Shown here: positions 10,793 to 38,223 of the stretch, piece after piece | Layout: each line of letters starts with the position of its first letter | Position numbering within the stretch: the first letter of the stretch is position 1 | Source: Paenibacillus phyllosphaerae | GTDB lineage: Bacteria > Bacillota > Bacilli > Paenibacillales > Paenibacillaceae | NCBI RefSeq assembly: GCF_014192105.1 | Contig: NZ_JACHXK010000001.1 | Location: 558,001-622,000 of the forward strand | Direction: 5' to 3' | Length of the DNA: 64,000 nucleotides | Notes under the pieces: model-generated | The model's database searches: none | The model's input: the letters and a program-made list of their open reading frames with translations, nothing else | What the model was told of the DNA's origin: nothing | Program-made: the position numbers and the translations under genes

Positions 10793-11532
10793 CCTTGCCC
10801 TCCTTAAGCATGATGCGCCCCTTAAGGGCTGCAGCATCCCATGACATAGAGCAATTTTAACACATGTTGGGCTGATTCCAAACTCAACGCCTATTATACG
10901 TGCACGTTTTGTGCAACGCTGTATCGGATATTGGGCAAAAGTTGTTTGATTTTGCGGGGGGTGCCCCGTACGCCCCCTTCTTCTACACCAAAACCTCCTA
11001 AGTTCCTTTTCCCCTCGCCCCTTCCCCCTCCGCCGAGGGGAACCAAGGGCAACCGCCCAGCTTATGCTTCCGAAGTGAGTTTTCCGTTGGAAAACTCTGA
11101 GGATACCCGTAATCGGCATCGCTCGATACGCGGCCGTCTTCGATCTGTCCTTTCGTGGCGGGCACGCGTTGTCCCACGGCGGATTAGCTTGCATGTCATT
11201 GACACGCAGCCCCCGCAATGCGGGACAAAGCTTTTGTTCGAGCTTCGTTCGCGACTTTGCGCCTTGGGAGCAGACACCAACTATTGTGCGAATTAAAAAT
11301 AGCGTGCTGACTCTCGCTTGACGTCCACGTTGTGGACACGCTGATTTTCTTTGTCCTGTTCAGTGTTTCATGAACAGTTAGCCCGAAACGGAGTGTTCGA
11401 ATGATTCTGAAGAAGCGGCAGCGTTCGCCTTTGTGAGGGGAATCCCACCTTTACCATTTCAATCAAGGAATCCCCGAACAACAGCGATCGGAAGAACATT
11501 TCGAATACGCAGTTGAACTCGGCTAACAGTTC
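10793..11532. other. Long intergenic region without a gene
   Basis: A 740-bp non-coding gap. From the HAD side it holds that gene's likely promoter and a small palindrome (TGCAC-AAAAC-GTGCA, read on the minus strand) next to a TATAAT at about 10890-10915. Then comes repeat copy A (11011-11342). The rest, about 11343-11532, has no feature I can name. No convincing ORF is present on either strand. Confidence 0.6.
11011..11342 (+). repeat. Hairpin-rich dispersed intergenic repeat, copy A
   Basis: Shares ordered blocks with copy C (34065-34360) and partly with copy B (28874-29016). In order: a C-rich block with GAGGGGAACCA (about 11021-11045); a 29-base block identical to C at 11127-11155 containing TACGCGGCCGTCTTCGAT; a TTGTCCC...GGGACAA stem (11169-11175 with 11222-11228); TTCGAGCTTCGTTC (11237-11250); and a 37-base block (11306-11342) with the hairpin GTCCAC-gtt-GTGGAC. 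Its own insert at about 11078-11100 forms the hairpin GAGTTTTCC-gtt-GGAAAACTC. Confidence 0.8.
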
Positions 11533-25060: not shown

Positions 25061-25714
25061 ATGTCTAACGGTTACGGGTACAAAGGTGCAGTAAGTCCGG
25101 CAACAACTGCGGGTTATGGTTACGGCCATGCCACTCCATATCCTGGTATGACCGCTGCATCGGCACCTGGCTTTGGTTCTTCCATGATGCCTTCCATGAT
25201 GCCTTCCGCCATGCCAACGATGACGCCGTCGATGATGCCTTCCATGATGCCTTCCATGATGCCTTCCATGATGCCTTCCATGATGCCGCAAACAGCAGTT
25301 GCCGGTGTTCAGACGCAGCCTCCAGTAGGCGTACCTAGCGGTGCTTTTGTTACACCAACAGGCGGTAACATCGTTACGATGCCTGTTGTCGAGGAATCAT
25401 ATGTAGAGAACATACTACGTCTGAACCGCGGCAAGATGGCGACGTTCTACATGACTTACGAGAACAATAGTCAGTGGAATGCTAAAATTTTCAAAGGCAT
25501 TATTGAAGCTGCCGGCCGGGATCATATCATTATCAGCGACCCCGCAACCGGGATGCGCTTCCTGCTCCTGACGCTCAATCTGGATTATGTCACGTTCGAC
25601 GGCCCGATTGCCTATGAATACCCATTCCAAGGCGGCTCCATCTCGAACAGCACGCCGATCGCCTCCACGACTGCCCCTACAGCTACTACGCTTCCGGCTA
25701 CGAACGGACGTTAA
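25061..25714 (+). CDS. gerQ: Spore coat protein GerQ with MMPS repeats
   Basis: A 217-residue GerQ. The C-terminal part (about 108-190) is the conserved domain: EESYVENILRLNRGK, TFYMTYENNSQWNAKIFKG, AGRDHIIISDPATG. GerQ keeps CwlJ in the coat and is cross-linked by transglutaminase Tgl in B. subtilis. The N-terminal part holds nine consecutive four-residue units (SMMP or close variants) at about residues 43-78, coded by a 12-base tandem repeat. The GAAAGCGAGG ribosome site precedes the ATG. The stop overlaps the convergent gene by 4 bases. Confidence 0.93.
   Translation: MSNGYGYKGAVSPATTAGYGYGHATPYPGMTAASAPGFGSSMMPSMMPSAMPTMTPSMMPSMMPSMMPSMMPSMMPQTAVAGVQTQPPVGVPSGAFVTPTGGNIVTMPVVEESYVENILRLNRGKMATFYMTYENNSQWNAKIFKGIIEAAGRDHIIISDPATGMRFLLLTLNLDYVTFDGPIAYEYPFQGGSISNSTPIASTTAPTATTLPATNGR
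25190..25288 (+). repeat. 12-bp tandem repeat inside gerQ
   Basis: Units of ATGATGCCTTCC, with two degenerate units (SAMP, TMTP) in third and fourth place and five near-identical units after them. It is in frame, so copy-number change alters length without a frameshift. Confidence 0.9.
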
Positions 25715-27832: not shown

Positions 27833-28819
27833 TTAGCGCGGCAGCAAGAAGCCCATCCGCTCTTTGACGTCGCGCACCGTCTTGCTCGCCGTCTCCGTTA
27901 CGCGTTCCGCGCCTTGCTTGAGAATATCATGCACGGCTCCGGAGCTGCGAATCTCCTGATAACGCTGCTGCAGCGGCTCCAGCGTCGCGACGACATGCTC
28001 AGCCAGATCCTTCTTGAACGCGCCGTAGCCCTGCCCCTCATACTTCGCTTCGATCTCCTCCAGCGACATGCCTGCACAATGCGAGTAAATGCCCATCAGG
28101 TTGCTCACTTCCGGCTTCTCGGCCGGGTTAAACTTCACCTCGCGGCCGGAATCGGTCGTCGCGCGGCTAAGCTTCTTGCGAATGACGTCCGGCGGATCGA
28201 GCAGCGCGATATAGCTTGCCGGATTCGGGTTGCTCTTGCTCATCTTCTTCGACGCATCATCGAGCGACATAATCCGTGCGCCTACCTTCGGAATGTACGG
28301 CTCCGGAATATTGAAGTAATCGCTGAAGCGGGAGTTGAAGCGGCCCGCCAGATCGCGCGTCAGCTCCAGATGCTGCTTCTGGTCGTCGCCGACCGGCACC
28401 AGGTGCGCATTGTAGAGCAGAATGTCCGCCGCCATGAGCGTCGGGTAGACGAACAGCCCTGCGCCGACCGAGTCCTTGCCCTGCGACTTGTCTTTGAATT
28501 GCGTCATCCGCTCGAGCTCGCCCATGTACGCGAGCGTCGTGAACAACCATCCGAGCTCGGCATGCTGCGGCACATGCGATTGGATGAACACGTTCGCTTT
28601 GTTCGGATCGATGCCGGCAGCCAAGTAGATGGCGGCTACCGCTTCGGATTGTTCCCTCAGCGCGGCAGGATCCTGCGGCACGGTGATGGCGTGAAGATCC
28701 ACGACCATGAAGAAGCATTCATGCGTGTGCTGAAGCTTCACGAAATTTTGGATCGCGCCAATGTAGTTGCCGAGCGTCAGCTGGCCGCTTGGCTGGATGC
28801 CTGATAGGACTCTTTGCAT
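27833..28819 (-). CDS. trpS: Tryptophan-tRNA ligase TrpS
   Basis: A 328-residue class I aminoacyl-tRNA synthetase. The HIGH-equivalent is QPSGQLTLGNYIG at residue 9, GDDQKQHLELTRDLA is near 145, and the KMSKS loop (KKMSKSNPNP) is near 195. Length and motifs fit bacterial TrpRS. The leader carries a T-box with a TGG specifier, but about 440 bases containing a dispersed repeat lie between the T-box terminator and the start codon. GGGGAGG precedes the ATG. Confidence 0.96.
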   Translation of the reverse strand: MQRVLSGIQPSGQLTLGNYIGAIQNFVKLQHTHECFFMVVDLHAITVPQDPAALREQSEAVAAIYLAAGIDPNKANVFIQSHVPQHAELGWLFTTLAYMGELERMTQFKDKSQGKDSVGAGLFVYPTLMAADILLYNAHLVPVGDDQKQHLELTRDLAGRFNSRFSDYFNIPEPYIPKVGARIMSLDDASKKMSKSNPNPASYIALLDPPDVIRKKLSRATTDSGREVKFNPAEKPEVSNLMGIYSHCAGMSLEEIEAKYEGQGYGAFKKDLAEHVVATLEPLQQRYQEIRSSGAVHDILKQGAERVTETASKTVRDVKERMGFLLPR

Positions 28820-28873: not shown

Positions 28874-29016
28874 TTCCCCCTCCCTAAGTCCCTCCTGAGG
28901 AGGGATTCCGAGGGCACGCGCCCTCTGGACACCCCGAATCGGCGACTTCTGCTACGCGGCCGTCTTCGATGAGACTTGGGTGCGTGGCCCGCTTTTGTCC
29001 GCTTCGGACAAAGCTC
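28874..29016 (+). repeat. Hairpin-rich dispersed intergenic repeat, copy B
   Basis: Blocks shared with copy C: CCCCCTCC...GGAGGG, then GAGGGC-N5-CCCTCTGGACACCC (about 28910-28935), then TACGCGGCCGTCTTCGAT (28953-28970), then GGCCCGCTTTTGTCC-gctt-CGGACAAAGC (about 28987-29013) with a loop of only 4 bases. It sits in the trpS leader. Confidence 0.78.
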
Positions 29017-29100
29017 CGGGTTAGGCGCTCTTCCGCGGCTTGTTCGCCTCGATGGAGTGGAAGGGTGTTGCTTTCGTTGGTGGATTGATGCGTTGGTGCT

Positions 29101-29259
29101 GGGACTCGCTTGTGACCTGCGGTCACAGGCTTACTGCGAATGTGCACTTGAGGTGCACGAAGTTCCTTTGGGACTCGCTTGTGGCCACAAGCTTACTGCT
29201 AGCGCGCACTTGATGTGCGCTAATTGCGTCCGTGCACTTGGGTGCACGAAGTTCCTTTT
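29101..29259. repeat. Imperfect tandem repeat in the trpS leader
   Basis: Two units, 29101-29169 and 29170-29259, both start GGGACTCGCTTGTG and end GGTGCACGAAGTTCCTTT. They contain three hairpins of the type GTGCAC-TTGAG-GTGCAC. It directly follows copy B and may be its variable end. Confidence 0.8.
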
Positions 29260-29264
29260 AAAAC

Positions 29265-29530
29265 AAAAAAGCCCTTCCTCCCGTAAGGGACGAAGGACCG
29301 TGGTACCACCCTAATTCGCTTGTCTGCCCGCTTCAACATGAAGCATGCGCGAACAAGCCTTGAGTTCCTTAACGCGGAACGAAACGATAGCCGCATACTG
29401 CGTTCGACCGAACGCTTTCCTCAGCCCTGCTCCGGGATCCATTCACCGCGCTCGCTCCGACCGGTTCGCACCAACCACCGGCTCTCTGACAGATACGACT
29501 GCACGATTACTTATTCCCATCCTCGCATTT
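29265..29530 (-). ncRNA. Tryptophan T-box riboswitch
   Basis: On the minus strand the leader has the AGAGAG motif in stem I, the specifier region GGTGAATGGATCCCGG with TGG (Trp), the T-box AGGGTGGTACCACGG (about 29299-29313 on the plus strand) and the terminator CCTTCGTCCC-ttac-GGGAGGAAGG with T6. Uncharged tRNA-Trp should favour the antiterminator and trpS expression. Confidence 0.94.
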
Positions 29531-29536
29531 ACGTAG

Positions 29537-34064: not shown

Positions 34065-34360
34065 TAGCCTCCCCCTTCCCCCTCCATCGGAGGGGAACCA
34101 GAGGGCCCCGTCCCTCTGGACACCCGGAATAAGCGTATCTCGTTACGCGGCCGTCTTCGATCTGTCCTTTCGGGGTTGGCCCGCTTTTGTCCCGATGACG
34201 CTTGCATGTCGATTCTCCATGCAAGCCGTCATTTGGGACAAAGCTCTGCGTTCGAGCTTCGTTCATTACTTTGGTGCCTTGGGGTGGTGACCTGCTGATT
34301 TTAAGCAGATAGCGAGACCATGAGCTGACTATCGCTTGACGCCCACTTTGTGGACACGCT
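34065..34360 (+). repeat. Hairpin-rich dispersed intergenic repeat, copy C
   Basis: The most complete copy. Blocks in order: CCCTCC-atc-GGAGGGG; GAGGG-ccccgt-CCCTCTGGACACCC; the 29-base block (34144-34172) identical to copy A; a long stem from CTTTTGTCCC (34184-34193) through ATGACG-CTTGCATG to CATGCAAG-C-CGTCAT and GGGACAAAG (34235-34243); TTCGAGCTTCGTTC (34251-34264); and the 37-base block (34324-34360). It lies between convergent genes. Confidence 0.82.
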
Positions 34361-34381
34361 TACCTAAATACAAGTGCAATT

Positions 34382-34431
34382 AAAAAGGGCTCTCCAAGTC
34401 ATCTTCGATGACTTGGAGAGCCCTTCTTCTT
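34382..34431. terminator. Strong bidirectional terminator
   Basis: AAGGGCTCTCCAAGTCATC-ttc-GATGACTTGGAGAGCCCTT: a 19-bp stem with a 3-base loop, A and T runs outside. It serves the SGNH esterase gene and shields the convergent region. Confidence 0.93.
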
Positions 34432-37789: not shown

Positions 37790-37892
37790 ATCCTCCTTTG
37801 GTTTACGAAATCGCGCCGTCCTAACGACGCTCGACTTCGTCATCGCGAGCAGATCGAACACATAACCGTTCAATAGATCTGCTCCTGCTTGT

Positions 37893-38101
37893 GGCCTACG
37901 AGGTTAGTTGTCGGATTCGGGCCGAGGAGTTCAGCCCTACGCTCCCGGACGCGAAGCAAGCGTCCTTGGCGATTCACCCCAAGCGGCAACCGCATTGGAA
38001 GACATGTCCAAACTGCAGCGGTATTCGCGAAGTTCCGCTCTTGCATGGTTGAGCAAGAAGCGGCAGGTTCCATGCGTGGCATGCCCCTGTTTAGTCCCCC
38101 G
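37893..38101 (-). ncRNA. c-di-AMP riboswitch (ydaO-yuaA class)
   Basis: On the minus strand, in order: GGGGGACTAAACAGGGGCA, then GGGGTGAATCGCC, then GTAGGGC and the highly conserved end CCGAATCCGACAACTAACC followed by TCGTAGGCC. These are the ydaO consensus blocks. It is followed by a 9-bp hairpin (GAGCAGATC/GATCTGCTC, 37842-37883 region) before the gene, without a clear T tract. Ligand binding usually turns the gene off. Confidence 0.93.
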
Positions 38102-38223
38102 TACATAAAGTTTCGGCTCGTGTAAAAGGTTACCACGGCCAAACAGACCGCTCTAGCGGTAATATACGGAAGTCGGGTTCATGTCAGGTATCTCGGCAGC
38201 CGCTGCTAGACAGCGTGTTCAAG

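What the first reader, a model, noticed from the sequence alone, without database searches (positions are those of the whole stretch)
34065..34360. Three-copy modular hairpin-rich intergenic repeat family (copies A, B, C)
Three non-coding regions, 11011-11342, 28874-29016 and 34065-34360, share the same ordered blocks in the same orientation. All three contain TACGCGGCCGTCTTCGAT; A and C are identical over 29 bases there and also share a 37-base end block with a GTCCAC-gtt-GTGGAC hairpin. All three have a GCTTTTGTCC...GGACAAAGC stem whose loop ranges from 4 bases (B) to about 50 (A), and in C is filled by a further long stem. Blocks are gained or lost as cassettes. There are no terminal repeats, target duplications or coding capacity that I can see. 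The design suggests a structured RNA or a non-autonomous repeat. I do not know a named family that matches.
Basis: seen in the sequence. Interest (0 to 1): 0.72.

Follow-up and report, generated by a model that had tools for sequence, protein, structure and literature searches.

The report
Replication-strand-locked hairpin repeat of Paenibacillus
The three stretches belong to a family of more than 80 non-coding DNA pieces in this Paenibacillus-like genome that nearly all point the same way relative to DNA replication and can fold into hairpins and perhaps a triple helix, which suggests an unrecognised kind of element tied to the replication fork.

Summary
Confirmed and far larger than reported. 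The three copies belong to a ~300-bp modular family with at least 83 copies in this 7.9-Mb Paenibacillus-type genome. Order: a triplex-type (TM/BoxC-like) mirror-repeat head with a hairpin; a near-invariant core ACGCGGCCGTCTTCGAT; a hypervariable hairpin on conserved feet; GAGCTTCGTTCG; a 3' hairpin. 79 of 81 copies lie on the C-rich strand whatever the neighbouring genes do; heads in six congeners do so in 43 of 51 cases. The variable hairpin stays self-complementary, but G-T and A-C mismatches are about equal (49:42), unlike terminators of the same genome (73:17): DNA structure, not RNA. At 8 syntenic sites G020, the other genome with full elements, lacks 6. Y1 and Y2 transposases are absent from both genomes, RT from G020. 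Five copies are interrupted at one exact core position by an IS110-like end carrying a matching 11-base word, as IS621 does in E. coli REPs. Best reading: a non-autonomous element acting as folded single-stranded DNA on the lagging-strand template, mobiliser unknown; a host fork-polar site is the main rival. Rfam and my literature searches gave no named family.

The parts
34068..34364 (+). Element C (reference copy), whole
34068..34099 (+). C: triplex-type head (mirror repeat CCTCCCCCTT-CCCCCTCC-ATC-GGAGGGGAA)
34098..34119 (+). C: head hairpin CCAGAGGG..CCCTCTGG
34143..34172 (+). C: near-invariant core ACGCGGCCGTCTTCGAT + TGTCCTTTCG (the tract that an IS110-like element enters in five other copies)
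34181..34244 (+). C: variable hairpin on feet GCTTTTGTCC..GGACAAAGC
34254..34264 (+). C: conserved block GAGCTTCGTTC
34265..34332 (+). C: spacer of nearly constant length and partly variable sequence
34333..34364 (+). C: 3' hairpin CGCTTGACGCCCAC-TTT-GTGGACACGCTTACC
34382..34428 (-). intrinsic-terminator-like hairpin just beyond the 3' end of C (not part of the element)
11013..11342 (+). Element A, whole
11013..11044 (+). A: triplex-type head
11059..11097 (+). A: inserted cassette AGCTTATGCTTCCGAAGTGAGTTTTCC..GGAAAACTC in the head hairpin
11127..11155 (+). A: core
11162..11231 (+). A: variable hairpin
11240..11251 (+). A: conserved block GAGCTTCGTTCG
11315..11342 (+). A: 3' hairpin
28876..29199 (+). 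Element B with its tandem 3' hairpins; lies between a T-box leader (29283-29532, -) and trpS (27833-28819, -)
28876..28909 (+). B: triplex-type head CCCTCCCTAAGTCCCTCCTGAGGAGGGA
28908..28928 (+). B: head hairpin
28952..28970 (+). B: core
28988..29014 (+). B: short form of the variable hairpin (feet GCTTTTGTCC/GGACAAAGC)
29105..29137 (+). B: 3' hairpin 1
29174..29199 (+). B: 3' hairpin 2

Best explanation
A non-autonomous, replication-coupled DNA element. SHOWN: more than 80 modular copies, mostly between heuristically called genes; orientation locked to the replication strand (element strand C-rich, its complement G-rich); a triplex-type head and a hypervariable hairpin that stays self-complementary; presence differs between species at syntenic sites. 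INFERRED: the G-rich complement is the lagging-strand template (Firmicute skew convention; 75% of heuristic coding bases lie on that strand); when exposed as single-stranded DNA behind the fork it folds into a Y-R-R triplex and hairpins; this fold is the recognised form, and copies excise and/or insert as single strands at the fork in one polarity, set in trans by an enzyme not yet identified. It works like an IS200/IS605-type element without that family's transposase. Its conserved core in turn serves as a landing site for an IS110-like element.
For: Strand lock 79 of 81 copies (binomial p 5e-21 computed for 78 of 80). It holds for 18 of 18 copies whose called downstream gene is co-oriented with the element, and for the 10 of those whose called ORF has at least 150 codons and does not overlap the element. 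Of the two exceptions, C7:356302 is a degenerate copy without the variable hairpin; C13:176527 has local skew near zero (-0.015 within 2 kb, +0.027 within 8 kb), as a small inversion would give. In relatives 43 of 51 head motifs are locked (G020 20:3, G018 3:0, G009 4:0, G021 7:0, G001 4:2, G014 5:3), and 16 of 20 3'-hairpin matches. Interior of the variable hairpin beats all 20 shuffles in 60 of 67 copies. Pairs 980 WC, 49 G-T, 42 A-C, 45 other, against 917/73/17/19 for 77 terminator hairpins; Fisher p 1e-4, p 0.012 with matched score cut and flanked mismatches only. Head is a mirror repeat rather than a direct repeat in 49 against 5, 57 ties, of 111. At 8 bracketed syntenic sites G020 lacks 6 and has 2 in the same orientation. 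Precedent: IS608/ISDra2 orientation follows replication via the lagging template (review PMC5371812, passages).
Against: No enzyme: Y1_Tnp absent here and in 20 of 21 congeners; Y2_Tnp absent here and in G020; RT present here but absent from G020, which carries the family. No near-identical copies: 57 aligned copies average 62% identity, maximum 79%, so no sign of recent movement of the element itself. No target duplication or exact border could be fixed, because the species compared are too diverged. 123 of 321 alignment columns are conserved at 90% or more beside 60 below 50%, which points to selection on standing copies; up to 43 of the conserved columns were search seeds, so this is inflated. 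The lock is not perfect in relatives (8 of 51 opposite).
Confidence: 0.47

Rival explanations
1. A host-function, fork-polar chromosomal site: the folded lagging-template structure, or its duplex form, is read by a host protein (pausing, restart, topology or segregation), and selection keeps both the orientation and the conserved blocks.
For: Block-wise conservation without recent copies; two syntenic sites in G020 keep a family element in the same orientation while the variable parts differ; the orientation lock recurs across the genus.
Against: Six of eight bracketed sites are empty in G020; 12 of 22 genus genomes have no BLAST match to C at E<=1e-6, and 3 of 8 congeners none to an 18-base head pattern; at least five copies tolerate interruption by an IS110-like element; much longer and more modular than the polar motifs I can recall (KOPS, Chi, SRS).
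Confidence: 0.27
2. A structured non-coding RNA or RNA-level element made from each locus.
For: Conserved hairpins and covarying stems, for instance pair 5 of the 3' hairpin A-T 61, G-C 7, C-G 5 of 77 hairpins.
Against: No Rfam family at the gathering score; no G-U excess (3' hairpin 2 G-T, 4 A-C); copies sit in all gene contexts with orientation set by replication.
Confidence: 0.08
3. The lock reflects gene orientation: the elements are placed antisense to, or just past the terminators of, leading-strand genes.
For: 38 of 67 copies have an opposite-strand terminator-like hairpin 3-82 nt beyond their 3' end; the downstream gene points against the element in 58 of the 76 copies where one was called.
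Against: The 18 copies (10 by strict criteria) with a co-oriented downstream gene are locked too; the distance to the terminator is not fixed.
Confidence: 0.08
4. A passive palindrome/triplex product: replication slippage and quasi-palindrome correction, which act differently on the two strands, create and maintain the hairpins without mobility or function.
For: About equal G-T and A-C mismatches; internal tandem duplications; TM motifs are linked to instability in E. coli (PMC4666352, abstract and passages).
Against: Cannot explain the shared non-palindromic core and blocks at dispersed sites.
Confidence: 0.06

Closest known systems
Intrastrand triplex motif TM / BoxC / PIT (E. coli and >260 bacterial genomes; Holder 2015, PMC4666352: abstract, section 15 and passages seen)
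   Same: The ~32-bp head is the same kind of G/C-rich hairpin plus third-strand mirror repeat, multi-copy.
   Different: In E. coli it is described as a motif of about 34-37 nt with no strand bias (13:10); here it heads a ~300-bp ordered element that is strand-locked. 'Paenibacill' and 'Firmicutes' do not occur in that paper's main text.
REP / BIME / REPIN with RAYT (TnpA-REP)
   Same: Multi-copy mosaic of imperfect intergenic hairpins, non-autonomous, and targeted by an IS110-family element as REPs are by IS621 (PMC11208160, passages).
   Different: About 10 times longer than a 20-40-bp REP, one orientation, no RAYT/Y1 gene in the genome. CGTC-tagged REPs (PMC3733652, abstract and passages) also lack a known transposase; in many of the families described there, units sit close together in opposite orientation.
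IS200/IS605 elements and their miniature derivatives
   Same: Works like: hairpins acting in single-stranded DNA (recalled for the ends), no TIR or TSD seen, orientation follows replication (PMC5371812).
   Different: No Y1 transposase; no matched terminal hairpins or cleavage site shown.
Integron attC sites (recalled)
   Same: Hairpins conserved in structure rather than sequence, variable terminal part, single-strand recognition.
   Different: No protein over the integron-integrase cut-off (0 of 22 genomes), no cassette arrays seen, no R/L boxes recognised by eye (recalled consensus).

Membership tests
TM/BoxC intrastrand triplex (head module only) | Y tract, loop, complementary R tract and a mirror-symmetric third tract | tested here: met
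   Mirror better in 49, direct better in 5, 57 ties, of 111 informative heads; 54 of 165 heads dropped as without a perfect hairpin or uninformative
TM/BoxC intrastrand triplex (head module only) | triplex forms in vitro and in vivo | not testable with these tools
   needs CD/NMR/footprinting
IS200/IS605 or RAYT-REP | Y1 HUH transposase in the genome | tested here: not met
   PF01797: 0 in G000 and G020, one weak hit just over the cut-off (G017) in 22 genomes; the control rang in 5 of 14
IS200/IS605 or RAYT-REP | orientation follows replication | tested here: met
   79 of 81
IS91/Helitron-like (Y2) | Y2 transposase | tested here: not met
   PF04986: 2 of 22 genomes (G013, G017), neither G000 nor G020; none of the 14 control genomes rang
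Group II intron derivative | intron RNA signature; intron-type RT in genomes with the family | tested here: not met
   no Rfam intron match; RVT_1 has 5 hits in G000 but none in G020, which carries the family
Integron attC | integron integrase | tested here: not met
   TIGR02249 over cut-off in 0 of 22; sub-threshold hits in all 22
MITE (DDE type) | terminal inverted repeats and target duplication | tested here: inconclusive
   none seen in the copies read; borders not fixed, no dedicated scan run
Known Rfam RNA | score at or above the gathering threshold | tested here: not met
   below threshold only viral/animal miRNA, Staphylococcus sRNA and ctRNA models, 6 matches at E<=1
IS110 (the sequence that interrupts five copies, not the element itself) | non-coding end followed by an IS110 transposase, with a guide word equal to the target | tested here: met
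   end alike in 14 plasmid records; the two read have an IS110 transposase about 170 nt downstream; 11-nt word GATGTGTCCTT shared with the core (9 of 20000 shuffles), homologues share 8 and 10 nt with their own left flanks at the same place. The transposase gene of this genome was not seen.

The most novel reading that the evidence does not exclude
A new class of replication-fork-polar mobile or signalling DNA: a ~300-bp element whose active form is a triplex-plus-hairpin fold on the lagging-strand template, maintained at more than 80 sites by an enzyme or host protein that is none of the known HUH (Y1/Y2) or integron types tested here.
Probability: 0.35. Interest if true: 0.85.

Novelty: new variant of a known kind. 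Interest (0 to 1): 0.66.

Why it matters
Triplex motifs have been known in bacteria since the 1990s without an accepted role, and no polarity was seen in E. coli. Here a motif of that kind heads a large element whose polarity relative to replication is nearly absolute, so a link between non-B DNA and the lagging strand can be tested directly. If the element moves, an unknown single-strand-acting enzyme remains to be found; if it does not, it is a new type of fork-polar chromosomal site. The IS110-like insertions give a natural case of a guide tuned to a repeat core.

Tried and rejected
Structured RNA: rejected as the main reading. RNAalifold on a sequence alignment of 57 copies gave a poor consensus because the variable hairpins do not align by sequence, so stems were tested copy by copy. 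A plain pair count on the head hairpin was too noisy to use (254 WC, 82 other, 29 G-T, 27 A-C). Insertion at a fixed distance from a terminator, as recalled for group IIC introns: distances 3-82 nt, rejected. Y1, Y2, RT and integron integrase as the common mobiliser. Spread on plasmids, phages or viral contigs: no match to the element (exact core pattern). My first reading that contigs break on the hairpin fold was wrong: the five copies at contig ends are interrupted by an IS110-like end. I had also dropped C1:499882 as chance; it is a real copy. I had first read the hairpin pattern as not following the lock; against skew it does in 16 of 20 (the one G002 hit was not tested). Literature searches listed no description of this family; that holds only for those terms in an open-access library.

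Full report
OBSERVATION. The three regions are real copies of one element, with small corrections: A's 5' foot is GCGTTGTCC, C's end hairpin is GCCCAC-ttt-GTGGAC, and B has lost the GAGCTTCGTTCG block and ends in a different set of hairpins.

COPY NUMBER. BLAST with C gave 52 matches in the own genome, partial ones included, with 40 of 111 candidates scored. The core motif with up to 2 mismatches gave 86 hits against 2 for the backward control. I fetched stretches around most of these, not all (C5:221798, C14:158914 and C19:65192, among others, were not read). In the fetched stretches 84 core hits were scored. Four were dropped at first; on re-reading, three are chance (C1:617188-, C1:879005-, C12:100517-) and C1:499882+ is a real copy with head, core and feet. 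That makes 81; with C1:880728 (BLAST and sequence) and a C18 copy at least 83. Nine of the 80 copies of the working set lack a recognisable GAGCTTCGTTCG within reach, four of them because they are interrupted.

ANATOMY. Order 5'-3': triplex-type head CCTC[G/C]CCCCTT-CCCCCTCC-loop-GGAGGGGAA; hairpin CCAGAGGG..CCCTCTGG; GACACCCGTAA; core ACGCGGCCGTCTTCGAT.TGTCCTTTCG; feet GCTTTTGTCC/GGACAAAGC around a variable hairpin; TTCGAGCTTCGTTCG; TGCCT..GG; a spacer of variable sequence; TCGCTTGACGTCCAC..GTGGACACGCT. The distance from GAGCTTCGTTCG to the 3' hairpin is 75-81 nt in 56 of 57 copies. Of 321 columns in 57 aligned copies, 123 are conserved at 90% or more and 60 below 50%; up to 43 of the conserved ones were search seeds. 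Pairwise identity averages 62%, maximum 79%: a star with no recent pair. The 3' unit is tandemly repeated in some copies, and a cassette replaces the head-hairpin loop in others, A among them.

STRAND LOCK. Taking GC skew over up to 10 kb on each side, 78 of the 80 working copies lie with the element strand C-rich; with C1:499882, 79 of 81; counting the three chance hits too, 80 of 84. Gene contexts, element read as +: -- 34, +- 23, -+ 11, ++ 7, five with one neighbour unknown. The gene calls are heuristic ORFs, and in 13 of 80 copies a called ORF overlaps the nominal element. All 18 copies with a co-oriented downstream call obey the lock; so do the 10 whose call has at least 150 codons and no overlap. 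The exceptions are a degenerate copy (C7:356302) and a copy with local skew near zero (C13:176527). 75% of heuristic coding bases lie on the G-rich strand, as expected if that is the leading strand; I take the strand that carries the G-rich sequence to be the lagging template by that convention. In relatives, head motifs in selected 20-kb regions, all heads counted whatever their body, are locked in 43 of 51 cases; 5 of the 8 opposite ones (G014, G001) lie within 1 kb of a head on the other strand. The cousin 3' hairpin is locked in 16 of 20.

DNA OR RNA. Scoring G-T and A-C mismatches alike, the interior of the variable hairpin gave 980 WC, 49 G-T, 42 A-C and 45 other pairs in 67 copies, and beat all 20 mononucleotide shuffles in 60. 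The same scoring on 77 terminator hairpins of this genome gave 917, 73, 17 and 19; the G-T:A-C ratios differ (Fisher p 1e-4). Counting only mismatches flanked by WC pairs: 29:24 against 44:12 (p 0.014), and 26:22 at the terminators' score cut (p 0.012). In the 3' hairpin the fifth pair changes on both sides (A-T 61, G-C 7, C-G 5 of 77). So palindromy is maintained, without an RNA signature.

TRIPLEX-TYPE HEAD. Of 165 heads from this genome and relatives, 130 held a perfect pyrimidine/purine hairpin and 111 were informative; the upstream tract matched the mirror image better in 49, the direct repeat better in 5, tied in 57; perfect mirror 57, perfect direct 17. Copies are related, so these are not 111 independent tests. 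Read on the complementary strand the head has the Y-R-R order of the E. coli TM motif, reported without strand bias (PMC4666352). That it forms a triplex here is not shown.

TURNOVER. None of 12 trpS loci read from relatives (of 80 found) has an element between T-box and trpS, where B lies; P. glycinis and P. nasutitermitis carry cousin heads upstream of the T-box. In G020 three sites of L082 were read and are empty. A systematic bracket test found 8 testable copies: 6 with no core or head in G020, 2 with a family core in the same orientation. Most G020 regions had been chosen around G020 elements, which favours presence. A further site (C1:726625) carries a related-type element in G020, by inspection.

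AN IS110-LIKE PARASITE OF THE CORE. Five copies (C3, C13, C18, C20, C34, all at contig ends) continue after ...GATGTGTCCTT (GATGTATCCTT in C18) with one and the same sequence, identical over the 66-90 bases available. Its first ~78 bases are alike in 14 plasmid records, mostly of Bacillaceae genera; in the two that I read an IS110 transposase follows about 170 nt downstream. The end carries GATGTGTCCTT, the word it has entered (shared words this long in 9 of 20000 shuffles); the two plasmid homologues carry at the same place 8- and 10-base words equal to their own, different, left flanks. This is what a bridge-RNA target guide would look like, and it repeats the known case of IS621 in E. coli REPs (PMC11208160, passages). 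The transposase gene in this genome was not seen; one contig (C43) begins with a probable right junction. It explains five contig ends; it does not explain how the element spreads.

RANGE. Exact core pattern: G000, and G020 of 39 relatives searched (one search listed 39 genomes with matches in 2). BLAST matches to C at E<=1e-6: 10 of 22 genus genomes, G000 included. The head hairpin pattern occurs in 170 of 392 genomes of the order, with 0 backward-control hits, mostly in the same family; in one genus (g17) it is a single copy in most positive genomes and may be something else. No match to C in plasmids or phages, none to the exact core pattern in viral contigs.

MECHANISM. The lock, the folding and the patchy presence are what insertion of a folded single strand at the lagging template would give, as documented for IS200/IS605 (review passages). 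But Y1 and Y2 transposases are absent from this genome and from G020, no protein in 22 genomes reaches the integron-integrase cut-off, and RT is absent from G020. I therefore say it works like such an element and do not file it as a member. The main rival is a host fork-polar site, favoured by the block conservation without recent copies. Neither is proved.

Noticed in passing
L089, L122, L127, L312, L313 (contig ends of C3, C13, C20, C18, C34): Five copies interrupted at one core position by an identical IS110-like end that carries an 11-base word equal to the target.
   Followed up: partly
window 11388-11440: CCGAAACGGAGTGTTCGAATGATTCTGAAGAAGC.. recurs in similar form 3' of other copies (C1:412530, C14:6392, C15:157766); looks like a second repeat family.
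   Followed up: no
window 11059-11097: Cassette AGCTTATGCTTCCGAAGTGAGTTTTCC..GGAAAACTC inserted in the head hairpin of A and several other copies.
   Followed up: partly
window 28876-29532: Element B sits between the terminator of a T-box leader and trpS; none of 12 relatives' trpS loci read has it there.
   Followed up: partly
window 37878-38128 (-): c-di-AMP riboswitch (RF00379).
   Followed up: no
window 25167-25300: 12-bp tandem array, 8 overlapping register copies listed.
   Followed up: no
G020 loci L063, L067, L069, L262: A second element type with the same kind of hairpin GCTTTTGTCC/GGACAAAGC but another body (TTCGTGC..GTTCGCGG..GGCACGCTTTTGTCC), here just 5' of the first type.
   Followed up: partly
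genus g17 genomes: AGGGCGCAGCCCTCTGGACACC occurs once in most of the g17 genomes that match; perhaps an unrelated conserved site.
   Followed up: no
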